Source: Trichostrongylus colubriformis
Lineage: Eukaryota > Nematoda > Chromadorea > Rhabditida > Trichostrongylidae
DNA: 64,000 bases
Direction: 5' to 3'
Assembly (NCBI GenBank): GCA_963978905.1
Contig: OZ022258.1
Location: 50,080,591-50,144,590 of the forward strand
The translations under genes were made by a program, and so were the position numbers. Below the pieces are notes generated by a model that saw nothing but the letters and a program-made list of their open reading frames with translations, had not been told where the DNA came from and ran no database searches. Shown piece after piece: positions 30,232-63,712 of this stretch (position 1 is its first letter; each line of letters begins with the position of its first letter).

Positions 30232-33200
30232 CCCTCGACGGTCCGACGCCTCATCGTGGCGAGTGGGTGGCAATGGGACTGGACTGCGATGCACAGCGAG
30301 AGTCTTTTGCTTCGGCAAATGCTCCTGGCAGGTTCAACCATGCTGAGAAGGAGTAAAGTCCTAGCCAAGAGCGGCCCCCCCCCCCTTCCCTCTGTTTTGA
30401 TGGTTGAGGAAGGGGCCTGCGGACGCGCTGGCAACGCTTCGTCAGGACACCAGAGAACAAAAACGCTCAACCAGCAGAAAAACAGCCTCAGTACCCCGCA
30501 CACCGGGCTCTGCCGTCTCCGACGTCGGACGGTACGACAAACGGTGAGAGGCGAAGAAATCTCGGGTTGCGCAGGACGTCATGGATTCTGGACAATGACG
30601 ACACACCTCGTACACGGCACGGAGACTGCTTCATGCTCTGCACCTACAACGCCAGAACAGTCTCGTCCAACGCCGATCTCCATGCTCTCCTCGACGCTGC
30701 GACTCGCATCAAGTTCCATGTGATCGCGCTACAAGAAGCAAAGAGCAGAAGAACCGACGTACGACAGTTCAACGACGGGACTCTTGTTATCCGTGGAGAG
30801 AAGATCCCGTCGCGGAATGTCGGAGGCGTTGGATTTGTCGTGCACCCGTCCGTCGTCCGCCACGTCGACTCTCACGAGATTGTGTCTCCTCGTCTGGCCA
30901 TTCTACGCCTTCATCCACCGCATCGGAAGACCATCTCAATCGTCAACTGCTACTCACCACACGCAGCAGCTGACGATTCCGAATTGGATGCGTTCTATGA
31001 ACACCTGGAAGAAGTCATCCGCAAAGAGAAGTCCTTCTACAACTGCGTTGTCGGTGACTTCAACGCAAGGTTAGGAAAAGGCAACAGCGAGGAACATAGG
31101 ATAGGCGATAGGAACGACAACGGACGTCGTCTCGTTGACCTCACGTCTGCAGCACGTCTCTTCCATGGTAATTCGCTGTTTGAGAAGAAGGAACACCGCC
31201 GCTGGACATGGGAGTCACCCAATGGCACGACTCATGCTGAGATCGACCACAATCTAACAAACAGAAGATGGTGCCTCTACGACACCTCCGTGGTGCCATC
31301 TTCCTGTTGTGGATCCGATCATCGCCTTCTTCGGGCCAAAATCAGGTTCGACACTCGACTGGAGAAGAACACCTGTCACCGGCCGAAGGGGAGGAAGCAA
31401 GTCGTGTATGACGAGAACCTTCTGCACGAGGCACTATCCCGTTATGACTGGCGAGTCGTGGAGGACCCTACCGAAGACTACGAGCTGCTTCTCAAAGGAT
31501 TGCAAACCTGTGCTGATCTTGCATGTCTTCAACAATCAAGCAGAAGCGATCGGATTTCATCGAACACCAAGACGCTGCTTGAAAGGAGGAGAAGTTTGAG
31601 GCTGGATCCAAATGCAACTCATCTCGAGCGACTGGTTATCAATGTCAGTTGCAGAAATGCGTTACAGGAGGATCTTGCGCAGTACAGGAAGAGAAGAATT
31701 CTAGAGGCGGCGCAGGAAAGGCGAAGTCTGAAGAAGTGCCGTCGAGACCTCTACGAGTTCAGTATTCCGCTATCATCATTGAAAACTGAAGACGGAACTG
31801 TCACTACTTCTCGTTACGAGATGAAGTCAATCACGGAGAGGTTCTACACCAATCTGTTCCGTTGCACACTACCCCTGCCAGATCCAGACATCCCCGCTGG
31901 TGGATCACCATTAAGGATTCTGCCGTCTGAAGTGCGAGTCGCAAGGAGTATGAAGAGCGGCACGGCTCCAGGGCCAGACAAGCTCTCTGCCGATCTTCTT
32001 CGAGCAGGAAACCACGTCCTGCACTCACTACTCGCGGCACATATGACCTCCTACCTTCAGAAGGAGCGGATCCCGGATCAGTGGAGGAGTTCGCGCACTG
32101 TCATCTTGCACAAGAAAGGTGACAGGGATGATCTTCGCAACTACCGACCGATTAGCTTGCTGAGCGTGCTCTACAAGCTTTTCACGAAGATCATCCTAAC
32201 GCGAATATCGCGCACATTGGATGAGGCCCAGCCATACGAACAAGCTGGATTCCGTCAGGGATTCAGCTGCATGGACCACATTCAAACCGTTGCGATGGTC
32301 ATTGAAGTCTGCAGGGAATACCATCTTCCCCTCGTTCTAACCTTCGTCGATTACGAAAAGGCCTTTGACAGCGTCGAAACGAATGCTATCCTGTCTGCGT
32401 TGGTCGACCAAGGAGTGGACGCGTCCTATATTCGAACACTGGCTGACTGCTACCACCGCTGTTCTACGACAATACAGCTCTTCCAACGTCCAATCAACAT
32501 CTCCATCGGAAAGGGCGTTAGGCAAGGCGACACCATCTCGCCGAAGCTGTTCACTGCCGCATTGCAGTGGGTGATGAAGTCGCTCGACTGGGACGACAAG
32601 GGCATATGTGTGGACGGAAAGTTCCTCTCGAACCTTCGTTTCGCAGACGACATCGTCATCTTTTCGCGTAGTACCAATGAAGCAGAGGCGATGCTCCGAG
32701 AGCTGAACGAAGCCGGAAGTAAGATCGGACTGCGGATCAATCGGAAAGACACAGTTCATGAAGAACGCCTGGTGCGATGGAGGAAATGTGAAACTCGACG
32801 GCTCTCCCATCGCCGAAACGAAGTCGTACGTCTATCTTGGGCGTTCCATGAACATGGACAACGACATGAAGGAAGAGCTCGACAGAAGAAGGAGAGCTGC
32901 ATGGTCAGCCTACGGGTCTATTAAAGAGGCCACCGACCAGCTAAAGGATCCTGACCTACGCGCCCGTCTATTCGACTCGACAGTCCTTCCTGCTCTGTGT
33001 TACGCTGCCGAGACGTGGCCTGATACGTCAGCCACGGCGAAGTCCTTGCAGGTGACTCACAGAGCACTCGAGAGATGTCTTCTGAAGTACACCCGGCTAT
33101 CTCAATATCGTGCCGGGCTTCGCAGCTCCGATTTGAGGCAGATCTCTCGTCTACGAGATCCTGCGGAATACGCATCGAAGGCCAAACATCGGTGGGCCGG

Positions 33201-44370: not shown

Positions 44371-46170
44371 AAAAAACAAAACAGGCAAATTCATTAAGAA
44401 CTCCAGCTCAGACCTCGAAATTACGATTCCAATTCGCTAACCGCTGCTATCGATGCTATTTCGCAACTCGCAACAGACCTGTAATACAGGTTACCCGTAT
44501 ATCGTAGCCGTCTGTAACTCCGGTCCAAAAATGGTTAAGCAGATTTGAAGGGCAGATTTGAGATATCGTTCGAAACTGCGTTGGCGACACATACTATACA
44601 TCTCGTCTCAAATGGCCATGGTGACCTGGGAGCCTTCCGTTGTAAGTCACTGATCGCCTTCGTACTGTAAAAGACGCAAAATGCCACATTCGTTAGAGCA
44701 TCTATAATACCATAAGACCATTTTAATTGTCTCTATGTGGGAAAAATGGGGCGGTGAAGAGTTTTCGATCCTTTCATTTCGAAGTGCTTCAAAATTATAC
44801 AATGCAAAATATTCGCTATAAAGTCAGAGTCTGGGTATTATATAATAGAATATTTGATCAATGTGGAGATAGAGGACATGTGATGAGATAGATAAACAAA
44901 ATAAAACAGCATTTCTTTGAAAATTTTTTTTTGGAGTCTTGAAAAATGTTCATTTTATGTAACAGTTATAAGTGGAGTAAGTCGAGGCAGAGGCGCTGTG
45001 AGAAAGCTGTTTGATTGCTGAAATGAGCTTGTCACTCTCTGAACGCATCCGCCTTTTATGATAGACACCAGTTGACAAGGAATGTTTGTATGTGGCAGAT
45101 TCGTTTGTGTGACGAGTGGTGAAAATCGGAGGAGAAAAAAGGAATCCTCACATGCATCGCTGCCAAATGAAAATCATGGTTTTCCATCGATACCGGTCTG
45201 ACGGATTGGCTGCAGACCGGTATCGATGTGCATATTCTGCTCAGCCGCTCGGGTAAGAACAGTTCTCTTAACCTACGCTTTTACGGCTGGATGGCATACT
45301 GGATACCACGGTGGGCTTTTAAGCGGGTGAAATGATGGGCTTGTGTTCGGATTCTGCTGCTAACAAATTTTTGCATTCTTTTGTTTTCACTATTTCTTCT
45401 TCACATATGCCTCTTTATGTCCAGTGACTATGATTTCGTTGAAAGCGTGCCAGCTTGACTCTAAGTAGGTACGAATTTTCAGCGGATTTGGTGATCTGAC
45501 TTTTTTGGACACGAAGGGAGCTGTAGCGCTTGAAATTCGCGTTTTCGTGCTGAATGAGTATCATATTGCATTCTGGGGTCAAGCTACCCTTGGAGGCATT
45601 TTTTAACCAAATCCAAATTTTGGCCCTAACTTCCACGCGGTATGTTTGTCCATGAATAGGTGTCCTTTTTTATTTGTAGAGGTGAAGAATTATTGAAGTC
45701 GCTGAAAGTCAATGGACTGTGCACAACCTGAATGTACATATATCGCTTTAACTTCACCTACCAAGTATCAAACAAGAAAACTAATCAGGATTTCTTGACA
45801 TGTGATAACGTAGTCTCCCTCTTTGACCTTCGTAGAACGTGCAGTCGAAGGATACCAATGCTCAGCTCAAATTTTTGCATTTTCTTTGAAACTTTTTTTG
45901 AAAATTTTTTGAAATTTTTTTGGTTCAGAATCTTGTGATGGGCTGGAAACTTACCCCTAGGGGGTAGTTCGACCCCTTGAGCACGAACATCAAATCCTGT
46001 TAGTGCAACCCTGTCTTGCTCGTGCGCTCTGGGCGCTGAAAGGCTTAACAAATTGGTCTGTCAAATTCGCTGAAGATGCTAATAGGGTGTAGCCTGATTT
46101 TCAGAGTGATTATTGTACTTAATTTACACGTTCTCATGTTTGCGAACCCTGCAATGAAACTGAAATTTTG
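44371..46170. other. Intergenic, no supported gene
   Basis: Short ORFs only. A small perfect palindrome (ATCGATACCGGTCTG facing CAGACCGGTATCGAT) lies at about 45187-45226. Confidence 0.5.
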
Positions 46171-49559: not shown

Positions 49560-52500
49560 CGCATCACCGTAAAGTTAAATATACGCATCGATCGAGAAAA
49601 TGAGCGCATCTGCGCATCCGCGATTTGTGAGAATTGGCGGATCGGCACATTCGCGATTTGGGAATTTAGGCGCGCCACGTCACTCTTGTAACCGCGTTCA
49701 ACTGACCGCGGTTGCCAGAGTGACGTGGCATGCCAAAAATTCCAAATCGCGGATGTGCCGATGCGCTAAAACTCTTATTCAATTTGTTATGCCATACCCA
49801 ACTAAATGAGAATTTTGGCGCATTGGCGTAAAGTTAAATATACGTATCGATCGAGAAAATGAGCACATCTGCGCATCTGCGATTAGAGAGAATTGGCGCG
49901 TTTGCGTAAAGGATAAGATACGTATTAATCGGAAGGTGAAAGTATTGGCGCATCCGCGATTTTGGATATTTGCCATAACAGATATCGACTTTCGATAAGA
50001 TATGGAAAATTACGAAAAAGAAATAGGAGAAAAAGAAACCAACCGCACGTTGACACGCGCCGCGTTCAACTGACCGCGGTTGCCAGAGTGACGTGGCATG
50101 CCAAAAATTCCAAATCGCGGATGTGCCGATGCGCTAAAACTCTCATTCAGTTTGGTATGCCATACCCAACTAAATGAGAGTTTTGGCGCATTGGCATAAA
50201 GTTAAATATACGTATCGATCGAGAAAATGAGCACATTTGCGCATCAGTTATTTGGGAATTTTGGTGTGCCACGTTACTCTTGTAACCGCGATCAGTTGAA
50301 CGCGGTGTGTGCCGACGTGCGGCTTTCGATATCGACTTTCGATAAGATATGGAAAATTACGAAATAGAAATAGGAGAAAAAGAAATCAACCGCACGTTGG
50401 CAAGTGCCGCGTTCAACTGACCGCGGTTGCTAGAGTGACGTGGCATGCCAAAAATTCCAAATCGCGGATGCGCCGATGCGCTAAAGCTCTTATTCAATTT
50501 GTTATGCCATACCCAACTAAATGAGAATTTTGGCGCATTGGCGTAAAGTTAAATATACGTATCGATCGAGAAAATGAGCACATCTGCGCATCTGCGATTA
50601 GAGAGAATTGGCGCGTTTGCGTAAAGGATAAGATACGTATTAATCGGAAGGTGAAAGTATTGGCGCATCCGCGATTTTGGATATTTGCCATAACAGATAT
50701 CGACTTTCGATAAGATATGGAAAATTACGAAAAAGAAATAGGAGAAAAAGAAACCAACCGCACGTTGGCAAGTGCCGCGTTCAACTGACCGCGGTTGCTA
50801 GAGTGACGTGGCATGCCAAAAATTCCAAATCGCGGATGCGCCGATGCGCTAAAGCTCTTATTCAATTTGTTATGCCATACCCAACTAAATGAGAATTTTG
50901 GCGCATTGGCGTAAAGTTAAATATACGTATCGATCGAGAAAATGAGCACATCTGCGCATCTGCGATTAGAGAGAATTGGCGCGTTTGCGTAAAGGATAAG
51001 ATACGTATTAATCGGAAGGTGAAAGTATTGGCGCATCCGCGATTTTGGATATTTGCCATAACAGATATCGACTTTCGATAAGATATGGAAAATTACGAAA
51101 AAGAAATAGGAGAAAAAGAAACCAACCGCACGTTGACACGCGCCGCGTTCAACTGACCGCGGTTGCCAGAGTGACGTGGCATGCCAAAAATTCCAAATCG
51201 CGGATGCGCCGATGCGCTAAAACTCTCATTCAATTTGGTATGCCATACCCAACTAAATGAGAGTTTTGGCGCATTGGCGTAAAGTTAAATATGTGTATCG
51301 ATCGAGAAAATGAGCACATTTGCGCATCAGTGATTTGGGAATTTTGGCGTGCCACGTCACTCTTGTAACCGCGATCAGTTGAACGCGGTGTGTGCCGACG
51401 TGCGGCTTTCGATATCGACTTTCGATAAGATATGGAAAATTACGAAAAAGAAATAGGAGAAAAAGAAATCAACCGCACGTTGACACGCGCCGCGTTCAAC
51501 TGACCGCGGTTGCCAGAGTGACGTGGCATGCCAAAAATTCCAAATCGCGGATGCGCCGATGCGCTAAAACTCTCATTCAATTTGTTATGCCATACCCAAC
51601 TAAATGAGAATTTTGGCGCATTGGCGTAAAGTTAAATATACGTATCGATCGAGAAAATGAGCACATCTGCGCATCTGCGATTAGAGAGAATTGGCGCGTT
51701 TGCGTAAAGGATAAGATACGTATTAATCGGAAGGTGAAAGTATTGGCGCATCCGCGATTTTGGATATTTGCCATAACAGATATCGACTTTCGATAAGATA
51801 TGGAAAATTACGAAAAAGAAATAGGCGAAAAAGAAACCAACCGCACGTTGACACGCGCCGCGTTCAACTGACCGCAGTTGCTAGAGTGACGTGGCAAGCC
51901 AAAAATTCCAAATCGCGGATGCGCCGATGCGCTAAAACTCTCATTCAATTTGGTATGCCATACCCAACTAAATGAGAATTTTGGCGCATTGGCGTAAAGT
52001 TAAATATACGTATCGATCGAGAAAATGAGCACATTTGCGCATCTGCGATTAGAGAGAATTGGCGCGTTTGCGTAAAGGATAAGATACGCATTAATCGGAA
52101 GGTGAAAGTATTGGCGCATCCGCGATTTTGGATATTTGCCATAACAGATATCGGCTTTCGATAAGATATGGAAAATTACGAAAAAGAAATCAACCGCACG
52201 TTGACACGCGCCGCGTTCAACTGACCGCGGTTGCTAGAGTGACGTGGCATGCCAAAAATTCCAAATCGCGGATGCGCCGATGCGCTAAAACTCTCATTCA
52301 ATTTGGTATGCCATACCCAACTAAATGAGAGTTTTGGCGCATTGGCGTAAAGTTAAATATATGTATCGATCGAGAAGATGAGCACATTTGCGCATCTGCG
52401 ATTAGAGAGAATTGGCGCGTTTGCGTAAAGGATAAGATACGCATTAATCGGAAGGTGAAAGTATTGGCGCATCCGCGATTTTGGATATTTGCCATAACAG

Positions 52501-53815
52501 ATATCGACTTTCGATAAGATATGGAAAATTACGAAAAAGAAATAGGAGAAAAAGAAACCAACCGCACGTTGACGCGCGCCGCGTTCAACTGACCGCGGTT
52601 GCTAGAGTGACGTGGCATGCCAAAAATTCCAAATCGCGGATGCGCCGATGCGCTAAAACTCTCATTCAATTTGGTATGCCATACCCAACTAAATGAGAGT
52701 TTTGGCGCATTGGCGTAAAGTTAAATATATGTATCGATCGAGAAGATGAGCACATTTGGGTGCTACTGGAGTTGGGGGGGGGGGCCAGCGCACTGTGCTC
52801 TGCGTCTCTAACGCAGGGATAGAGCGCAGAGAAGCCATAGCGCTAGCCGAATCGGCTTCGAATACTGCATAGAAACGATTCTAATGAAGCAAATTCGTGC
52901 TTTTTTTCCATCCTATGTTAGCCTAAGCCTTGGGGAAGGAGATTCCCTTTCTCCAGGCTTAGGCGAATATGCGTAAGTGGTTGTTTAGTCTAGTTGAAGT
53001 GAATTTCTCGTTATATTCTGATGGAGGATAGTTTGATTGTTTTTTCAGTTAGTTAGCTGTATCTAGGCATAAAATAACCTTGAGAGTGCCTATAAACAGA
53101 AATTGGGGGCAACTTATGCTTTTGTCGAGTGGCCCCCCCCCCAACTCCAGTAGCGCCCACATTTGCGCATCAGTGATTTGGGAATTTTGGCGTGCCACGT
53201 CACTCTTGTAACCGCGATCAGTTGAACGCGGTGTGTGCCAACGTGCGGCTTTCGATATCGACTTTCGATAAGATATGGAAAATTACGAAAAGGAAATAGG
53301 AGAAAAAGAAACCAACCGCACGTTGACACGCGCCGCGTTCAACTGACCGCGGTTGCTAGAGTGACGTGGCATGCCAAAAATCCCAAATCGCGGATGCGCC
53401 GGTGCGCTAAAACTCTCATTCAATTTGGCATGCCATACCCAACTAAATGAGAGTTTTGGCGCATTGGCGTAAAGTTAAATACACGTATCGATCGAGAAAA
53501 TGAGCTCATTTGCGCATCTGCGATTTGAGACAATTGGCGGATCGGCGCATCCGCGATTCGAGAGAATTGGCGCGTTTGCGTAAAGGATAAGATACGTATT
53601 AATCGGAAGGTGAAAGTATTGGCGCATCCGCGATTTTGGATATTTGCCATAACAGATATCGGCTTTCGATAAGATATGGAAAATTACGAAAAGGAAATAG
53701 CAGAAAAAGAAAACAACCGCACGTTGGCACGCGCCGCGTTCAACTGACCGCGGTTGCTAGAGTGACGTGGCACGCCAAATCGCCGATGCGCTAAAACTCT
53801 CATTCAATTTGGTAT
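49560..53815. repeat. Satellite array of alternating ~368/347-bp units
   Basis: At least ten units with period 368, 347 or 353 bp. Every unit has ATCGATCGAGAAAATGAGC, AATCGCGGATGCGCCGATGC, GATATCGACTTTCGATAAGA and CGCACGTTGACACGCGCC. Unit length depends on which of two alternative middles is present: one with GGATAAGATACGTATTAATCG, the other with TGCCACGTCACTCTTGTAAC. The recurring 65-71-codon ORFs are by-products of the repeat. A transposon interrupts the array at 52759-53157. Related single sequence occurs at 6657-6860. Confidence 0.92.
52759..53157. mobile_element. 399-bp inverted-repeat transposon in the satellite
   Basis: Ends GGTGCTACTGGAGTTGGGGG and, reversed, GGCGCTACTGGAGTTGGGGG, about 28 bp of near-perfect inverted repeat including a G homopolymer. 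It is flanked by the 8-bp duplication CACATTTG (52751-52758 and 53158-53165), which reads once in uninterrupted satellite units. An 8-bp duplication fits the hAT superfamily; the assignment is inference. Inside are two hairpins (CTGCG..CGCAG near 52800; GCCTAAGCC..GGCTTAGGC near 52920). No transposase. Confidence 0.85.
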
Positions 53816-53817
53816 GC

Positions 53818-55985
53818 CAGCTGGAGCACACTACTGCGCGTCACACATGGAAGCATGCAAAGTCAGCGCGTGTATCGAACTCTCTCATCCCGTCACACAC
53901 TCTCACTCTCACCCAAGCCCGTAGGCCACGCCCTCTACACCTCAAACTTGGGTAGTTAAACCCAAGGGTGGACACACAGATATACAGACTCACCAAACTC
54001 CTGTTTTATATATGAGGTATGATATCCCGACACCTGGGCTCTTTCCGAACGAACTATAGACATTTTCATCTAAACACCGAACATTTTAATGCAGGCCCGT
54101 CAACAGCGTCCACAGTGTGCGGAGTGTGACATGATCCAGTAAAGTGGTGTGCAGTAAGGACACCTTCTACACAATAACCGATATTTTCAATCAATATTGA
54201 TCGGTGACGCATGTTGTTGCAGAATTTCAACTTTTATAAGGGCACTTAATCAATAGTATGGTCCATAAGCCGTTCCCAGCCTTCTGCACAAAAACCGATA
54301 TTTTCACTCAATATCGATCGGTGGTGCGTGATATTGTAGAATTTCAACTTTTCTAAGGGCACTTAATCAATAGTATGGTCCATAAGCCGTTCCCAGCCTT
54401 CTGCACAAAAACCGATATTTTCACTCAATATCGATCGGTGGTGCGTGATATTGTAGAATTTCAACTTTTATAAGGGCACTTAATCAATAGTATGGTCCAT
54501 AAGCCGTTCCCACCCTTCTGCACAAAAACCGATATTTTCACTCAATATCGATCGGTGACGCATGCTGTTGCAGAATTTCAACTTTTATAAGGGCACTTAA
54601 TCAATAGTATGGTCCATAAGCCGTTCCCAGCCTTCTGCACAAAAACCGATATTTTCACTCAATATCGATCGGTGATGCGTGATATTGTAGAATTTCAACT
54701 TTTATAAGGGCACTTAATCAATAGTATGGTCCATAAGCCGTTCCCAGCCATCTGCACAAAAACCGATATTTTCACTCAATATCGATCGGTGATGCATGAT
54801 GTTGTAGAATTTCAATTTTTATGAGGGCACTTAATCACTAGTATGGTCCATAAGCCGTTTCCAGCCTTCCGCACAAAAACCGATATTTTCAATCAATATT
54901 GATCGGTGATGCATGATGTTGCAGAATTTCAACCTCTATGAGGGCACTCACTCAGTGGTATGGTCCATAAGCCGTTTCCAGCCTTCCGCACAAAAACCGA
55001 TATTTTCAATCAATATTGATCGGTGATGCATGATGTTGCAGAATTTCAACCTCTATGAGGGCACTCACTCAGTGGTATGGTCCATAAGCCGTTTCCAGCC
55101 TTCCGCACAAAAACCGATATTTTCAATCAATATTGATCGGTGATGCATGATGTTGTAGAATTTTAACTTCTATGAGGGCACTCACTCAGTAGTATGGTCC
55201 ATGAGCCGTTTCCAACCTTCTGCACAAAAACCGATATTTTCAATCAATCGATCGGTGATGCATGATGTTATAGAATTTTAACTTCTATGAGGGCACTCAC
55301 TCAGTATTATGGTCCATAAGCCGTTTCCAACCTTTTTCACAAAAACCGATATTTTCAATCAATATCGATCGGTGATGCGTGATGTTGTAGAATTTTAACT
55401 TCTATGAGGGCACTCACTCAGTAGTACGGTCCACGAGCCGTTTCCAACCTTCTGCACAAAAACCGATATTTTCAATCCATATGGATCGGTGATGCATGAT
55501 GTTGTAGAATTTCAATCTCTATGAGGGCACTCAATCAATAGTATGGTCCATAAACCGTTTCCAACCTTCTGCACAAAAACCGATATTTTCAATCGATGTC
55601 GATCGGTGATGCGTGTGTTGCAGAATTTCAACTTTCATGAGTGCATCTCCTACCATTCCCCACCCAACCCACACTTGACCCGACCTTCCCGCTGATGAGC
55701 CGACCTTCCGTTGGATCGGGTACATGAGCCGTTTCCAGCCTTCTGCACAAAGCCGGTACTTTCGATCGATATCGATCGATCCAATCGATATCGACAAAGT
55801 CGATGTGCGTTCTGTACATCCCCCATTACGCCTCACCCAGCCAGCACTTGGCCCTTTCCTGCTAACTTCTGAGGGTCTGTATAGTGTCACGTACCTCAAA
55901 CTTGGGTAATTGAACCGGACACACACACACACACACACACAAACGGACAAACCAAACTCCTGGTTTATATATAGGGTATGATAAT
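53818..55985. repeat. Composite SL1-motif repeat, copy 2
   Basis: The opening block (CACTACTGCGCGTCACACAT, CTCTCACTCTCACCC) matches copy 1. SL1-like stretches in reverse lie near both ends (53941-53962 and 55895-55916, each 21 of 22). Each is followed by a GGACACACA run, a CAAACTCCTGTTTTATATAT or CAAACTCCTGGTTTATATAT block and GGTATGAT. The element is therefore bounded by direct repeats of about 95 bp around the 117-bp tandem array. Confidence 0.7.
54125..55640. repeat. 117-bp tandem array, about 12-13 units
   Basis: Units begin TATGGTCCATAAGCCGTT, contain CACAAAAACCGATATTTTC followed by a TCAATATCGATCGGTG block (a natural hairpin around ACCGATATT/AATATCGATCGGT), and end with TAGAATTTCAACTT and a GAGGGCACT block. 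The left units carry CACTCAATATCG and the right units AATCAATATTG, so the array expanded in two phases. Period 117 bp, with small variation on the right. Confidence 0.85.
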
Positions 55986-57004: not shown

Positions 57005-57010
57005 TTTATT
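57005..57010 (-). terminator. Poly(A) signal of the CAP gene
   Basis: AATAAA on the - strand, about 80 bases past the stop codon at 57091-57093. Confidence 0.65.
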
Positions 57011-57090: not shown

Positions 57091-60000
57091 TCAAAATGAA
57101 CAGAGTCCTTCTGTAGTGTTACACTGGCCATTTGGACATTGACTGCAGACCTGACCGAGTGGGTAGATATTCGCTCCAATGGTGTTGACGCTAAAAGCAA
57201 ATGTCTGAAGGTGAAGTCGATTAAGTGAACGACACAGTGGAAACTTACAAGGATTTGTAAAAACATGAGGTAAAATACGAGTTTCCACATTTCTGCGTTG
57301 CACAACCAATATGCGTGTTGGTAGACCAGATCATCTAAAGTTGAGAGTTATTGTGCGGTGTGAAATAATAACGTCATCCGGCGAGCATGTGAAATATTTT
57401 TCGAATGATCATGACAATTTCCAAATAGACACGAAAATTTAGTGGGATATTTGGAACAAATTGGATATGGACTAATAATCTCCATTTTTTTCAAGCGGTA
57501 GGCAAGGTAGAGAAAAGGAGAAATTTCAAAAGTGCTGCAAAAAGGGTGTGTGCAGATACGACGCAAAATCGCTTCGCGGCGTTGCACTCGCGGCGCCATC
57601 AGCATGACTTGCCGAATCGATTGCCCTTGGAAGCCCGGCAGAGCGTGACTGCGTCACTTCTGCACTTCCACCCATGCCACACTGCCTCCTGCAGCTATGC
57701 CACCCTGCCTCCTCCACCCCCACACTGCCTCGCTTGAAGGCTTCCATGCCCTGTCACTGGTACTCACATTCGCCGCGGGCGGCCACGCGGTTTTCCGTCA
57801 TATCTGCACACACCCGGCTTATCTTAGAGGAGCAGAGGAAAGATGGTCTCACTTCGCTTCTGTTCTCATGCTTTTCATCGTTTAACTTGTGAGTCATTTG
57901 GTCTCTAAAAACTGAGTGGGTTCTCAAAAAGTTCGTTTCTCGCTTGAAGGCTCCCATGCCCTGCCACTGGTACTCGCACTCGCCGCGGGCAGCCACGCGA
58001 TTTTCCGTCATATCGTCACACACCCGGCTTATCTTAGAGGAGCAGAGGAAAGATGGTCCCACTTCGCTTCTGTTCTCATGCTTTTCGTCGTTTAACTTGT
58101 GAGTCATTTGGGCTCTAAAAACTAAGTGGGTTTTCAAAAAGTTCGTTCCGGTAACACTTTGAATGGGTAGCAGCAGTAATGCTACGTTTATCGATTGGTG
58201 ATCTTTCAGGGAGAATCTGAATTTTTTTTAAAGTTCCCCTCCATGTAACCCCGAACACTGGAAAAGATCTTGAGTGGAAGCTGTTGGCTAAATATGTACT
58301 GGCCTTAGTCATTCTTCTCACAACATTTGTTTTGGCTGAGCGCATGGATTGTGTGAAAATCAAGTTCGTAGGAACTCCGAAGCGCTCTAATTGTGACTGC
58401 CAAGCCGTGATAGCCTAAAATAAAATAAAAGTGTAGTAGAACGATTAGTACGAGACTCACGCCTAAAACTGAACCCCGAACTTACTCTCCGTATAGCCCC
58501 CAAGCTATCACTTGCTGTTTTAGGGAAGAAGTTGTGAAAATTCTCTTTCCAGCCAGGCCTTGTCCAAGGTTGTGATAATACTCCGTCACAACTGCTTGCA
58601 TGTGCGTAAGCAAATAGCTCAGCCGAGCAGTCGTATTTCTGAATAGTGCCAGAAGAATGAAATTTCGTGATTTCCTGGAAATTATAACTTTCTATGGCGA
58701 GCAAGTGACTTACCAGACGATACATGAACGCTGCTGTCGGTGTATTTCCGGCATTTCCATTTATGGTTTGCCCAGTAGCTACAAGGGATCTGAACACCGT
58801 TGTTACTCCTCAAATTATAGTAGTAACAGTTGTCATATCCTCACCTAAAATTATTGTGCATATCGAGAGCGATTTGTCTGAATTCAGGAGTGAACGGACT
58901 ACCCGGGCATTCCAAGCGAGCTGTAAATAATGCTTCGGTTTGAAGACTGAGATGAGAGTGGTGAAAATTGAAAAAAAAGAAGTCTATTGAAGTTTCAATT
59001 TTTGACAGCTGCTCATTATCGCCGCATCCCGCTCGAAGGTTGTTATAAAGATGCTGAATTGCGGGCAAAAGCTTTGTTCTTGGATGGGACTCGAACCCGC
59101 ACTCCATGCTTTCAGTGCATATATGCTAATCCATTATTCACCAAGACCCTGCTCAGCTTGACTCAGCATCCTTATAACAACTTCCGCATCGCACGGTGCG
59201 GTGATAATCAGCGGCTGACAAAAATTACCTTCAACAATGAGTATCTACCTAAAGGCACCGTGGCGGGCAAGGAGAAATTGTGAATTGGGAATGCATGTTC
59301 TCTGGAAACAAACATTCCACTTCAGAAGACGTGACATGTGGTGACGAAACTCGCAGTGGCTTGGGATTTTATCAAGATCCCACAGCACTGCGAGTGGTGT
59401 TGCCGTTCATCCGCCGAAGGAATTGCCACGACCAGCTGATGTGGCCTTTTGTCCGTCTGCATTTACGCCACCAGCTAGTGATGCAGAGGGACGTGAAAGA
59501 GGAGGGAGGGTTTTAGTCTCCTTTTCCTCGGGTTTCTCGGGTGGAGTGCAAGTGTTCCGACTGGTGAGGTCAGGTCAGGTTGCGCGGTGGATTGGAATCA
59601 GGTAAAGACAGGTAAAAACACGCTGCCAAAGCCCCTCCCCTGAAAAGGCTTAGGCTAATCTGGGAGAGCCCAGACGCAGGACCCGCCAGCATTCGCACAA
59701 TTCGCGAAGGGCGGTGACCCAGTTCGGTGCCGACCTCTAGAATCGGAACACTTGCAACACACCCGGGTTTCTCCCGTTTTATTACGTTCTTTCTCTATTG
59801 CTACACTGCTGAACATCCCTTCTGTTATATTCAACAATCTGCCACATCCCCCTTACAGTGTCTTTAAACCTTCAGCTTTACGGTTCGATGCCGATTATGG
59901 CCAACCTGCTCAAAATGTTATACGTGTGGGTGCTGAAAAGCTGTGGTAAATATATATTGGGTAGTCTAAAAAGTCTTTTCGTATTTTTAAATACCGCTTC

Positions 60001-63000
60001 TTCCCTCCAAACTGCTTTCCAGCAATCTTTTCTGTACATACACATGTAGTACAAGTCCACACGCATCTATAGGTATTATTGTCTTCCATATCCCGGATAA
60101 CCTTTTTCGGCAAAATAAACATATCAAAGGTAAACTTCATTTTCAATACAAAAATTTTTCTTCGAATGGCGTTAGACAGGGAAAGGAAAAGGTGATAATC
60201 CGATGGAGCAAGATCAGGGCTATGAGGTGGATGGGGCAGCAATTTTTATCCAAGCTCGAGAATTTTTTGGCGAGTCACTTTTTCAATAGTGGGGAGACTT
60301 GCCAAAAAATTGCCTCGCCAAAAAATTCTCGAGCTTGGATAAAAATTACTGCCTCATCCACCTTATAGCCGTGATCTTGCTCTATCGGCTTATCACCTTT
60401 TCCTTTCCATGTCTAACGCCTTTCAAAGAAAAATTTTTATATTGAAAATGAGGTTGACCTTTGATATGTTTATTTTGCCAAAAAGGTTATCGGGAGATGG
60501 AAGACAATGATACCTATAGATGCGTGTGGACTTGTATTACATGTGTATGTACAGAAGAGATTGCTGGAAAGCAGTTTGGAGGGAAAAAGCGGTATTTAAA
60601 AATACGGAAAGGCTTTTTAAACTACCCAATAATTAAGAGGCTGAGTTAAGGTGAAAGAGATCTCGGCAGAGTAATGGACTAGCATATAAGCGAAGAGAGC
60701 ATGGAGTGCGGGTTCGAATCCCGTCCGAGACTGGGGCTTTAGCCCATATTTCAGCATCCTTCTAATGTAATGAAGTCTGATCAACAGAGGATCTGCTGTT
60801 TGTAGAGATCACCTCTAAAGGCGGAACCTGCTAAACAGACGTCGAATGGTCTTCTCATCAGAACCTTGTCAGGTTCCTACGAGCACATTCTTTTTAATGT
60901 CACGAAAAGCTATTATGCAACTTACTGGATGTATTAGGCTGCGGTGCCGGAACGACTGGCTGCGGTGCCGGAACGACAGGTTGCGGTGCCGGAACGACAG
61001 GTTGCGGTGCCGGAACGACAGGTTGTGGTGCCGGAACGACAGGCTGCGGTGCCGGAACGACAGGCTGCGGTGCCGGAACGACAGGCTGCGGTGCCGGAAC
61101 GACAGGCTGCGGTGCCGGCACGACAGGCTGCGGTGCCGGAACGACAGGCTGCGGTGCCGGAACTACAGGATGCGGTGCCGGAACGACAGGTTGCGGTGCC
61201 GGAACGACAGGCTGCGGTGCCGGAACGACAGGCTGCGGTGCCGGAACGACAGGTTGCGGTGCCGGAACGACAGGCTGCGGTGCCGGAACGACTGGCTGCG
61301 GTGCCGGAACTACAGGCTGCGGTGCCGGAACTACAGGCTGCGGTGCCGGAACGACAGGCTGCGGCGCCGGAACAGCAGGTTGCGGTGCCGGAACGACAGG
61401 TTGTGGTGCCGGAACGACAGGTTGTGGTGCCGGAACGACAGGCTGCGGTGCCGGAACAGCAGGTTGCGGTGCCGGAACGACAGGTTGCGGTGCCGGGACA
61501 GCAGGTTGCGGTGCCGGAACGACTGGCTGCGGTGCCGGAACTACAGGCTGCGGTGCCGGAACTACAGGCTGCGGTGCCGTAACGACAGGCTGCGGTGCCG
61601 GAACGACAGGCTGCGGTGCCGGAACGACAGGCTGCGGTGCCGGAACGACAGGCTGCGGCGCCGGAACAGCAGGTTGCGGTGCCGGAACTACAGGATGCGG
61701 TGCCGGAACGACAGGTTGCGGTGCCGGAACGACAGGCTGCGGTGCCGGAACGACTGGCTGCGGTGCCGGAACTACAGGCTGCGGTGCCGGAACTACAGGC
61801 TGCGGTGCCGGAACGACAGGCTGCGGCGCCGGAACAGCAGGTTGCGGTGCCGGAACTACAGGATGCGGTGCCGGAACGACAGGTTGCGGTGCCGGAACGA
61901 CAGGCTGCGGTGCCGGAACGACAGGCTGCGGTGCCGGAACGACAGGTTGCGGTGCCGGGACAGCAGGTTGCGGTGCCGGAACGACTGGCTGCGGTGCCGG
62001 AACTACAGGCTGCGGTGCCGGAACTACAGGCTGCGGTGCCGTAACGACAGGCTGCGGTGCCGGAACGACAGGCTGCGGTGCCGGAACGACAGGCTGCGGT
62101 GCCGGAACTACAGGCTGCGGTGCCGGAACGACAGGTTGCGGTGCCGGAACAGCAAGTTGCGGTGCCAGGACAGCAGGTTGCGGTGCCGGAACGACAGGTT
62201 GCGGTGCCGGAACAGCAGGTTGCCGTGCCGGGACAGCAGGTTGCGGTGCCGGAACGACTGGCTGCGGTGCCGGAACAGCAAGTTGCGGTGCCAGGACAGC
62301 AGGTTGCGGTGCCGGAACGACAGGCTGCGGTGCCGGAACTACAGGCTGCGGTGCCGGAACTACAGGATGCGGTGCCGGAACGACAGGTTGCGGTGCCGGA
62401 ACGACAGGCTGCGGTGCCGGAACGACAGGCTGCGGTGCCGGAACTACAGGCTGCGGTGCCGGAACTACAGGATGCGGTGCCGGAACGACAGGTTGCGGTG
62501 CCGGAACGACAGGCTGCGGTGCCGGAACGACAGGTTGCGGTGCCGGAACAGCAGGTTGCGGTGCCGGAACGACAGGCTGCGGTGCCGGAACGACAGGCTG
62601 CGGTGCCGGAACGACAGGCTGCGGTGCCGGAACGACAGGCTGCGGTGCCGGAACGACAGGCTGCGGTGCCGGAACGACAGGCTGCGGTGCCGGAACTACA
62701 GGCTGCGGTGCCGGAACGACAGGTTGCGGTGCCGGAACAGCAAGTTGCGGTGCCAGGACAGCAGGTTGCGGTGCCGGAACGACAGGTTGCGGTGCCGGAA
62801 CAGCAGGTTGCGGTGCCGGGACAGCAGGTTGCGGTGCCGGAACGACTGGCTGCGGTGCCGGAACTACAGGCTGCGGTGCCGGAACTACAGGCTGCGGTGC
62901 CGTAACGACAGGCTGCGGTGCCGGAACGACAGGCTGCGGTGCCGGAACGACAGGCTGCGGTGCCGGAACTACAGGCTGCGGTGCCGGAACGACAGGTTGC

Positions 63001-63712
63001 GGTGCCGGAACGACAGGCTGCGGTGCCGGAACGACAGGCTGCGGTGCCGGAACGACAGGCTGCGGTGCCGGAACGACAGGCTGCGGTGCCGAAACGACAG
63101 GCTGCGGTGCCGGAACGACAGGCTGCGGTGCCGGAACTACAGGCTGCGGTGCCGGAACGACAGGTTGCGGTGCTGGAACAGCAAGTTGCGGTGCCGGGAC
63201 AGCAGGATGCGGTGCCGGAACGACAGGTTGCGGTGCCGGAACAGCAGGTTGCGGTGCCGGGACAGCAGGTTGCGGTGCCGGAACGACTGGCTGCGGTGCC
63301 GGAACTACAGGCTGCGGTGCCGGAACTACAGGCTGCGGTGCCGGAACGACAGGCTGCGGCGCCGGAACAGCAGGTTGCGGTGCCGGAACGACAGGTTGTG
63401 GTGCCGGAACGACAGGTTGCGGTGCCGGAACAGCAGGTTGTGGTGCCGGAACAGCAGGTTGTGGTGCCGGAACAGCAGGTTGTGGTGCCGGAACGACTGG
63501 TTGTGGTGCCGGAACGACAGGCTGAGCGACATCTGAATGAGTGTAATTTTTAATCTCTTAAACCATCTCGGTAAGCTTTCCATAGCTCACATACCCAACG
63601 CGACGAGAACGCTCAACAGGATGAAAAAGGAAATCTGAAAGTGTTTTTCTGCAGCTAACAATGCATACAAGGTAACAAATCAACTTACGGAAGGGATGCC
63701 ATAGGACCACAT
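57091..63712 (-). CDS. Secreted CAP/ASP-domain protein with giant PVVPAPQ repeat
   Basis: Nine exons in - strand order: 63712-63689, 63634-63595, 63532-60926, 58920-58845, 58789-58714, 58638-58486, 58414-58304, 57334-57249, 57190-57091. Phases agree at every junction, giving about 1090 residues. Exons 1-2 encode MWSYGIPSISFFILLSVLVA, a clear signal peptide. Exon 3 gives 868 codons of PVVPAPQ, PAVPAPQ and similar. Exons 4-9 give a full CAP domain (about 890-1090): CPGSPFTPEFRQ, DMHNNFR, TAAFMYRLKYDCSAEL, AWQSQLERFGV, MIWSTNTHIGCATQKCG, NIYPLGQVCSQCPNGQC, ending GLCSF. It has ten cysteines, as in nematode ASPs. The GHYTQ-type histidine is replaced (RRMTK). CAP proteins are secreted, sterol- or lipid-binding or immune-modulating in parasites; the role here is unknown. 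Exon 7 needs a GC-AG intron. Neighbours: none coding within 20 kb. Confidence 0.82.
57729..58143. repeat. ~207-bp tandem duplication in CAP intron 7
   Basis: 57729-57936 and 57938-58143 are near-identical (CGCTTGAAGGC, GGCTTATCTTAGAGGAGCAG, TTTTCAAAAAGTTCG). The 127-codon - strand ORF spanning both copies is a by-product: it does not fit the CAP fold or the splice phases. Confidence 0.8.
58304..58304 (-). other. Inferred GC donor of a GC-AG intron
   Basis: After ATGACTAAG the - strand reads GCCAGT instead of GT. Splicing here to TTTAG at 57335 joins RRMTK to MIWSTN in phase, as CAP homologues require. Nearby GT choices break phase or add about 17 residues that do not fit the domain. Confidence 0.5.
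58995..59232 (-). mobile_element. tRNA-like SINE inside an inverted repeat
   Basis: A 72-nt tRNA-like head (59147-59076 on the - strand) has a perfect B box GGTTCGAGTCC and complementary ends (GTCTTGG / CCAAGAAC). Its tail reads CAGCATCTTTATAACAAC. It lies between arms (59001-59062, 59160-59230) that are reverse complements: CTCATTATCGCCGCAT with ATGCGGTGATAATCAG-like sequence, and GTTGTTATAAAGATGCTGA with TCAGCATCCTTATAACAAC. The anticodon loop lacks the usual T33, so a working tRNA is unlikely. Confidence 0.55.
59957..60629. mobile_element. Second mariner-derived palindrome (CAP intron 3)
   Basis: A 673-bp element flanked by TA, with ends TTGGGTAGTCTAAAAAGTC and its near complement GGCTTTTTAAACTACCCAA. 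Each arm holds the 3' part of a mariner transposase; the - strand of the left arm reads LPHPPHSPDLAPSDYHLFLS (about 60239-60180). The arms meet near 60250-60340 around TCGAGAATTTTTTGGCGAG and its complement. The N-terminal transposase half is missing. Its sequence differs from the element at 9.6 kb, but the design and size are the same. Confidence 0.85.
60660..60731 (+). pseudogene. tRNA-like SINE head, second copy
   Basis: ATCTCGG pairs with CCGAGAC at six of seven positions. A perfect B box GGTTCGAATCC (60711-60721) sits in a T-arm (GCGGG with CCCGT). The downstream GGGGCTTTAGCCCATATTTC and CAGCATCCTTCTAA match the tail of the 59-kb copy. The D-arm has no good A box. Most likely a tRNA-derived SINE rather than a tRNA gene. 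Confidence 0.5.
60926..63532 (-). other. Repeat exon: 21-bp minisatellite encoding PVVPAPQ
   Basis: A single exon of 2607 bp bounded by a CATTCAG acceptor and a CCAGTAAGTT donor on the - strand. About 123 copies of a 21-bp unit run without one frame-breaking indel. On this strand most differences between units fall at third codon positions and leave Pro, Val, Ala or Gln unchanged. Recurrent coding changes are Val to Ala (PAVPAPQ), Gln to His, and rare Pro to Leu, Ser or Thr. Higher-order blocks of several units are repeated almost exactly (for example around 61.5-62.0 kb and again near 62.8 kb), showing expansion by duplication of long segments. Confidence 0.85.

What the first reader, a model, noticed from the sequence alone, without database searches (positions are those of the whole stretch)
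57091..63712. A secreted CAP protein carrying about 123 PVVPAPQ repeats ahead of its CAP domain
Seen: signal-peptide exons, a 2.6-kb repeat exon and six CAP exons join in phase on the - strand (g|at, a|ct and later junctions all agree), with consensus splice sites on both sides of the repeat exon. Known: nematode ASP/SCP proteins usually have one or two CAP domains and little else. Inference: the proline-rich region would form a long extended stalk of several hundred residues, possibly for surface display, multivalent binding or immune decoy. I know of no described ASP with such an extension. The gene is easily missed because the repeat is open in all six frames and longer + strand ORFs mask it.
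Basis: partly seen in the sequence, partly recalled or inferred. Interest (0 to 1): 0.92.

Follow-up and report, generated by a model that had tools for sequence, protein, structure and literature searches.

The report
Worm CAP gene with repeat stalk
A nematode gene appears to put a long, chargeless, proline-rich stalk between the signal peptide and the CAP domain of a secreted protein, on an exon that could be skipped without breaking the protein; if transcripts confirm it, it is a new design in a well-studied worm protein family.

Summary
On the - strand, 63712-57091, nine exons join in phase (1090 aa): two signal-peptide exons, a 2607-nt exon with 123 uninterrupted 21-nt PVVPAPQ units, and six CAP exons. 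E8 passes Pfam's CAP cut-off, E9 matches the Necator ASP-1 C-terminus, and E4 carries the CAP3 motif HNxxR; E5, E6 and E7 match nothing alone. The signal-peptide exon is the only one of its kind found in the window, and intron 3 offers the CAP exons no other.

Corrections: four frames of the array are open, not six; E7 ends in a GC donor; the GHYTQ (CAP1) motif is lost; no anchor is evident, so surface display is unsupported; the stalk has one R and no K in 868 residues, so tryptic peptide searches would miss it.

New point: the repeat exon is phase-symmetric (1-1). Skipping it would give an ordinary ASP start, so I read it as a minisatellite exon gained in the intron between signal peptide and CAP domain, encoding an extended spacer.

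New variant of a known kind.

The parts
63689..63712 (-). E1: ATG and first 8 codons (MWSYGIPS), donor GTAAGT, phase 0
63595..63634 (-). E2: hydrophobic core of the signal peptide (ISFFILLSVLVAL), acceptor ctttcag, donor GTATGT, phase 1 out
   Evidence: hydropathy 3.19; sole such exon in the window under the criteria used
60926..63532 (-). E3: repeat exon, 2607 nt, phase 1 in and 1 out (symmetric); acceptor cattcag, donor GTAAGT
60939..63521 (-). Array of 123 uninterrupted 21-nt units encoding PVVPAPQ and close variants
58845..58920 (-). E4: start of the CAP region (RLECPGSPFTPEFRQIALDMHNNF, R split with E5), CAP3 motif HNxxR
   Evidence: motif definition from passages of PMC4118828; no profile or PDB match alone
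58714..58789 (-). E5: CAP region; no match alone
58486..58638 (-). E6: CAP region; KENF where CAP4 has G(EQ)N(ILV); no CAP match alone
58304..58414 (-). E7: CAP region; ends VVRRMTK where CAP1 (GHYTQ type) is expected; GC donor AAG|GCCAGT; alternative in-phase GT donor at 58321 (GTGAGA)
57249..57334 (-). E8: CAP exon with a significant match (MIWSTNTHIGCATQKCGNSYFTSCFYKS)
   Evidence: Pfam PF00188, 22.8 bits, cut-off 21.1; PDB venom allergen-like protein 4, E 3.2e-4
57091..57190 (-). E9: C-terminal cysteine-rich tail and stop
   Evidence: Ancylostoma secreted protein 1 (3nt8), E 3.7e-4
57005..57010 (-). AATAAA, 81 nt past the stop
58921..60925 (-). Intron 3 (2005 nt), with a 677-nt palindrome at 59955-60631 that holds a mariner transposase fragment
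57335..58303 (-). Intron 7 (969 nt) with a 210-nt tandem duplication at 57729-58147

Best explanation
It is a gene for a secreted CAP-superfamily protein of the nematode ASP/VAL kind in which a 2.6-kb minisatellite exon lies between the signal-peptide exon and the first CAP exon. Shown: the anatomy, the frame agreement at every junction, the CAP identity of two exons plus the CAP3 motif in a third, and the 1-1 phase symmetry of the repeat exon. Inferred: the exon arose in, or was captured by, the phase-1 intron between signal peptide and CAP domain, and grew by unequal exchange in whole 21-nt steps, which never break the frame. The product would be a soluble secreted protein with an extended polyproline-II-like stalk (868 residues, about 85 kDa, up to about 270 nm if fully extended) ahead of a CAP domain without the metal-binding tetrad, so the CAP domain most likely works as a lipid/sterol-binding module, as in HpVAL-4 and SmVAL4. 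Inferred role of the stalk: a spacer that swells the molecule and resists gut proteases (no K, acidic or aromatic residue, one R), keeping the CAP domain in the secretion or matrix and possibly presenting a repetitive antigen.
For: All junctions in phase, E3 length divisible by 3. 5 of 13 minus-strand GTAAGT are donors here. E2 is the only hydrophobic exon among 19 exon-frame candidates window-wide; in intron 3, of 24 ATG-to-donor candidates none and of 1 internal exon candidate none resembles a signal peptide. E8 is CAP by Pfam and all 7 of its PDB matches are CAP proteins by name; E9 matches three ASP entries only; HNxxR in E4. Array changes concentrate at third codon positions of the PVVPAPQ frame: 9 of 16 change types synonymous, 5.0 expected, P 0.013. 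No unit-internal indel in 123 units. Skipping E3 turns G|AT into G|CT, Ala, giving ...LVAL-A-RLECPG. Tetrad-less VALs bind sterol: passages of PMC5893428, PMC4118828, PMC6193718.
Against: No transcript, homologue or second nematode genome was available. E5, E6 and E7 have no match alone, and E4 none beyond its motif. E7 has a GC donor and CAP1 and CAP4 are degenerate, so decay is possible. The third-position signal fits the mirrored + frame CGAGTTG even better (10 of 16, P 0.002). Intron 3 is 2 kb and holds transposon debris, and AATAAA at 60474 and ATTAAA at 60898 could end a separate repeat gene. Every functional step is inference.
Confidence: 0.6

Rival explanations
1. Two genes: a stand-alone secreted proline-rich repeat protein (E1-E3, reading on to the stop at 60900) and, downstream, a separate CAP gene or CAP gene remnant.
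For: The E3 frame reads on only 9 codons past the donor to a stop at 60900; AATAAA at 60474 and ATTAAA at 60898 on the - strand; mariner palindrome between the two halves. C. elegans has secreted repetitive proline-rich proteins of this build, T22D1.2 and CLX-1 (abstract and passages of PMC12340121).
Against: Full-consensus donor (GTAAGT) immediately after the array; matching phase 1 on both sides; no signal-peptide exon found for the CAP exons in intron 3.
Confidence: 0.17
2. Decaying locus: the CAP gene is a pseudogene or the repeat exon is not included, and the array is a minisatellite that merely looks coding.
For: GC donor at E7, RRMTK in place of GHYTQ, KENF in place of G(EQ)N(ILV); no homologue tested; several array frames are open.
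Against: No stop or frameshift in any CAP exon, E9 well conserved, no unit-internal indel in 2583 nt, third-position bias of changes. SmVAL4 and HpVAL-4 show that functional VALs can lack these motifs (passages).
Confidence: 0.15
3. The array is coding on the + strand (CGAGTTG frame) or on neither strand.
For: In the + CGAGTTG frame 10 of 16 change types are synonymous (P 0.002), one more than in PVVPAPQ; the + ORF is open for 875 codons.
Against: No ATG between its upstream stop and the array, stop immediately after the array, and the only signal-peptide-like exon is on the - strand next to it. I did not model + strand exons in full.
Confidence: 0.05
4. The stalk is a tannin-binding proline-rich module, like salivary proline-rich proteins, fused to a CAP domain.
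For: 41% proline in tandem repeats after a signal peptide; tannin-induced proline-rich proteins exist in C. elegans (abstract and passages).
Against: The repeat differs from those described there; no expression data; the CAP fusion is unexplained.
Confidence: 0.08

Closest known systems
Nematode single-CAP ASP/VAL proteins (Na-ASP-1, Na-ASP-2, HpVAL-4)
   Same: Signal peptide, CAP exons, cysteine-rich C-terminus: E9 matches Na-ASP-1 and Na-ASP-2, E8 matches venom allergen-like protein 4 entries and Na-ASP-1. Loss of the second tetrad histidine as in HpVAL-4 (passages of PMC5893428).
   Different: An 868-residue proline-rich stalk before the CAP domain. No such extension found (0 papers for three repeat strings) or in the listings and passages.
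Yeast Pry1 and Pry2 (and Pry3)
   Same: Signal sequence, low-complexity region, CAP domain in that order in Pry1/Pry2; over 600 residues of low complexity in Pry3 (passages of PMC7340583).
   Different: Their region is Ser/Thr-rich; here 6 Ser/Thr in 868 residues and a strict 7-residue repeat. In Pry3 it follows the CAP domain and ends in a GPI anchor.
Moniliophthora MpPR-1b
   Same: N-terminal low-complexity extension, rich in Ser, Thr and Pro, before a CAP domain (passages of PMC3447762).
   Different: A fungal protein; no described repeat motif was recognised in that extension.
SmVAL6 of Schistosoma mansoni
   Same: CAP protein with a long extension (about 295 aa) made of same-phase exons that are alternatively spliced (passages of PMC2270263).
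   Different: Extension is C-terminal, no signal peptide predicted, many small exons rather than one minisatellite exon.
HYP effectors of Globodera pallida
   Same: Secreted nematode proteins with in-frame variable-number tandem repeats, one subfamily with four proline-rich repeats (passages of PMC4177990).
   Different: No annotated domain besides the signal peptide, no CAP domain; different and far fewer repeats.
C. elegans T22D1.2 and CLX-1
   Same: Signal peptide followed by tandem proline-rich repeats (abstract and passages of PMC12340121).
   Different: No CAP domain mentioned in what I saw; different repeats.

Membership tests
CAP superfamily (Pfam PF00188) | Match to the CAP profile above the curated cut-off | tested here: met
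   E8 alone: 22.8 bits, cut-off 21.1. E4-E7 and E9 alone do not match; the domain as a whole was not tested.
CAP superfamily (Pfam PF00188) | CAP3 motif HNxxR (as given in PMC4118828) | tested here: met
   HNNFR across E4|E5; sole hit of the extended pattern in the window
CAP superfamily (Pfam PF00188) | CAP4 motif G(EQ)N(ILV) | tested here: not met
   KENF in E6
CAP superfamily (Pfam PF00188) | CAP1 motif with the second cavity histidine (GHYTQ type, recalled form) | tested here: not met
   VVRRMTK before MIWST, or absent with the other donor; no GH-x-[TS]-Q mini-exon in intron 7. SmVAL4 and HpVAL-4 lack it too and are CAP by structure.
CAP superfamily (Pfam PF00188) | Alpha-beta-alpha sandwich fold | not tested
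   Needs the spliced domain; referred
Strongylid ASP group | C-terminal cysteine-rich tail as in Na-ASP-1/-2 | tested here: met
   E9: 3nt8 E 3.7e-4, 1u53 E 0.013, 4nui E 0.014
Strongylid ASP group | Phylogenetic placement among nematode ASPs | not testable with these tools
   Protein database switched off; the genome search did not complete
Secreted proteins | N-terminal signal peptide | tested here: met
   E1+E2, hydropathy 3.19 over 10 residues; no SignalP-type predictor available
Pry-type Ser/Thr-rich CAP proteins | Ser/Thr-rich region | tested here: not met
   6 Ser/Thr of 868
Epicuticlins | Tandem repeats with tyrosine motifs such as GYR (abstract of PMC9612446) | tested here: not met
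   No aromatic residue in the stalk
Tannin-binding proline-rich proteins | Proline-rich tandem repeats after a signal peptide | tested here: met
   41% Pro, 123 units
Tannin-binding proline-rich proteins | Tannin binding or induction | not testable with these tools
   No expression or binding data

The most novel reading that the evidence does not exclude
The repeat exon is a symmetric (1-1) cassette: by skipping or including one exon the worm makes either an ordinary soluble ASP (about 221 aa) or the same CAP domain on a protease-resistant stalk of up to about 270 nm, whose length can change between individuals in 21-nt steps. It would be a length-tunable, splice-switchable antigen or spacer, born from a minisatellite in the intron between signal peptide and CAP domain, and unseen by tryptic proteomics because the stalk has almost no tryptic site.
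Probability: 0.22. Interest if true: 0.75.

Novelty: new variant of a known kind. Interest (0 to 1): 0.52.

Why it matters
ASP/VAL proteins are abundant in parasitic-worm secretions and studied as vaccine antigens, yet what they do is unsettled (passages of PMC6193718 and Discussion of PMC7694928). A member with an 868-residue stalk on a frame-neutral exon would show how a minisatellite can be drafted as a new protein part, and would show that gene predictors and tryptic proteomics can both miss such products. It also gives a clean test of whether spacer length matters for a secreted CAP protein.

Tried and rejected
Non-coding minisatellite: weakened by zero unit-internal indels in 123 units and by the third-position bias. 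Strand from the array alone: fails, because the mirrored + frame CGAGTTG scores as well or better. Own signal peptide for the CAP exons in intron 3: none found under the criteria. Another CAP copy in the window: tblastn of the six exon peptides gave only chance-level hits besides themselves, best E 0.047. Known domain in the array: a 200-aa slice has no Pfam match. Mini-exon with an intact GH-x-[TS]-Q in intron 7: none. Mucin-like stalk: rejected, 6 Ser/Thr of 868. PolyA signals as proof of one gene: rejected, since AATAAA/ATTAAA also occur in intron 3. Three-unit repeat pattern in IMG/VR and GTDB contigs: 0 matches each, not informative for a nematode. Higher-order array structure: weak recurrence at 21-22 units only. 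tRNA and Rfam scans of the window: nothing. GC-AG introns in nematodes: searches gave nothing that I opened.

Dropped before counting: the sixth piece was off frame (re-run in frame); E9 had a wrong start (corrected). The label saying E4 was not counted was wrong; one search shows that the one hit is E4. Only 10 of the 60 long ORFs listed went to Pfam.
Full report
Anatomy. The finding lies in DNA with short introns and consensus splice sites. Nine - strand exons were placed by their sequence marks and checked for phase: E1 63712-63689, E2 63634-63595, E3 63532-60926, E4 58920-58845, E5 58789-58714, E6 58638-58486, E7 58414-58304, E8 57334-57249, E9 57190-57091. Together 3273 nt, 1090 aa. Introns are 54, 62, 2005, 55, 75, 71, 969 and 58 nt. 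Donors of E1, E3, E5, E6 and E8 read GTAAGT, E2 GTATGT and E4 GTGAGG; GTAAGT occurs 13 times on the - strand of the 64-kb window, five of them here and the next at 45954. AATAAA lies 81 nt past the stop, at 57010.

The repeat. E3 holds 123 units of 21 nt at 60939-63521 with all 122 core spacings exactly 21. There are 22 distinct DNA units; 88 of 123 encode PVVPAPQ, 17 PAVPAPQ, 6 PVVPAPH and 12 other variants. Relative to the consensus unit there are 16 change types: 10 fall on third, 4 on second and 2 on first codon positions of the PVVPAPQ frame. A permutation that keeps transitions and transversions apart gives P 0.013 for 9 synonymous types in this frame. The mirrored + frame CGAGTTG shares the same third positions and scores 10 (P 0.002); the other four frames give P 0.83 or more. 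So the array looks coding, in one of two frames, and the strand must come from other evidence.

One gene or two. E2 encodes ISFFILLSVLVAL; [quoted passage not shown] In intron 3 the best of 24 ATG-to-donor candidates in the needed phase reaches 1.50 with weak donors, and the single internal candidate 0.82. E3 has a full-consensus donor directly after the array, in phase 1, which is what E4 needs. Against this, the read-through frame stops at 60900, and ATTAAA at 60898 and AATAAA at 60474 could serve a separate repeat gene. Intron 3 also holds a 677-nt palindrome (59955-60631) with a mariner transposase fragment matching Mos1 (E 3.2e-7). I put the two-gene model at 0.17.

Is it CAP. E8 alone passes the Pfam CAP cut-off (22.8 against 21.1 bits), and all seven PDB sequences it matches are CAP proteins by name. 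[quoted passage not shown]). E4 carries HNxxR, the CAP3 motif as defined in passages of PMC4118828, and the extended pattern with the upstream cysteine and leucine occurs nowhere else in the six-frame window. E5, E6 and E7 match nothing CAP-like alone; their membership rests on order, phase and splice sites. Two features point to divergence or decay: E7 ends at a GC donor (AAG|GCCAGT; an in-phase GT donor GTGAGA lies at 58321), and the GHYTQ-type motif reads RRMTK or is absent. CAP4 reads KENF instead of G(EQ)N(ILV). Functional VALs that lack cavity histidines are known: HpVAL-4 and SmVAL4 still bind sterol (passages).

What is new here. E3 is phase-symmetric: 2607 nt, phase 1 in, phase 1 out. 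Inclusion gives codon G|AT (Asp) at its start and A|CT (Thr) at its end; skipping gives G|CT (Ala), so that the leader would read ...SVLVAL-A-RLECPG, with A-L-A as a good signal-peptidase site by the -3,-1 rule (rule recalled). The simplest history is an ordinary signal peptide-CAP gene with a phase-1 intron into which a minisatellite exon came. It also means that the gene could make a stalkless product by exon skipping; nothing here shows that it does.

How it would work. The stalk is 868 residues, 41% proline, with no K, acidic, aromatic, Met or Cys residue, one R and 6 Ser/Thr, 85 kDa and about 269 nm at 0.31 nm per residue (rise per residue recalled). That composition suggests an extended polyproline-II-like spacer that trypsin, chymotrypsin and pepsin would hardly cut (inference). 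No anchor is evident at the C-terminus, and the E2 stretch of 13 hydrophobic residues is short for a membrane anchor, so a soluble secreted or matrix-bound product is more likely than surface display (inference from reading). I take the CAP domain as a lipid/sterol-binding module and the stalk as a spacer that enlarges and protects the molecule, perhaps with a role as repetitive antigen; tannin binding, known for proline-rich proteins and considered for those of C. elegans, is a lesser option.

Compared with the known. A low-complexity region between signal peptide and CAP domain exists in yeast Pry1/Pry2 (Ser/Thr-rich) and in Moniliophthora MpPR-1b (Ser/Thr/Pro-rich) (passages); a spliced same-phase extension exists C-terminally in SmVAL6; in-frame tandem repeats in secreted nematode proteins exist in HYP effectors. 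None of these joins a strict repeat stalk to a nematode CAP domain. My paper searches found no such nematode protein, and the three repeat strings occur in no held paper, but only open-licence papers are covered. I opened passages, abstracts or single sections of eleven papers, none in full. Verdict: new variant of a known kind, resting on one locus without transcript support.

Noticed in passing
window 59955-60631: 677-nt palindrome in intron 3 (arms 91-92% complementary) containing a mariner-type transposase fragment at 60141-60245, Mos1 match E 3.2e-7.
   Followed up: partly
window 57729-58147: Two 209-nt copies, 94% identical, head to tail at 210-nt spacing in intron 7; 210 is a multiple of 3 and one - strand frame (57754-58227) is open across both.
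   Followed up: no
window 30408-32921 (+): 838-aa open frame with endonuclease and reverse transcriptase domains (PF03372, PF00078): non-LTR retrotransposon-like.
   Followed up: no
window 50328-52755 and 54163-55645: Two further large tandem arrays, periods 368 and 117 nt.
   Followed up: no
window 59043-59170 and 60637-60765: Inverted pair of about 129 nt, 75% identical, flanking the palindrome within intron 3.
   Followed up: no
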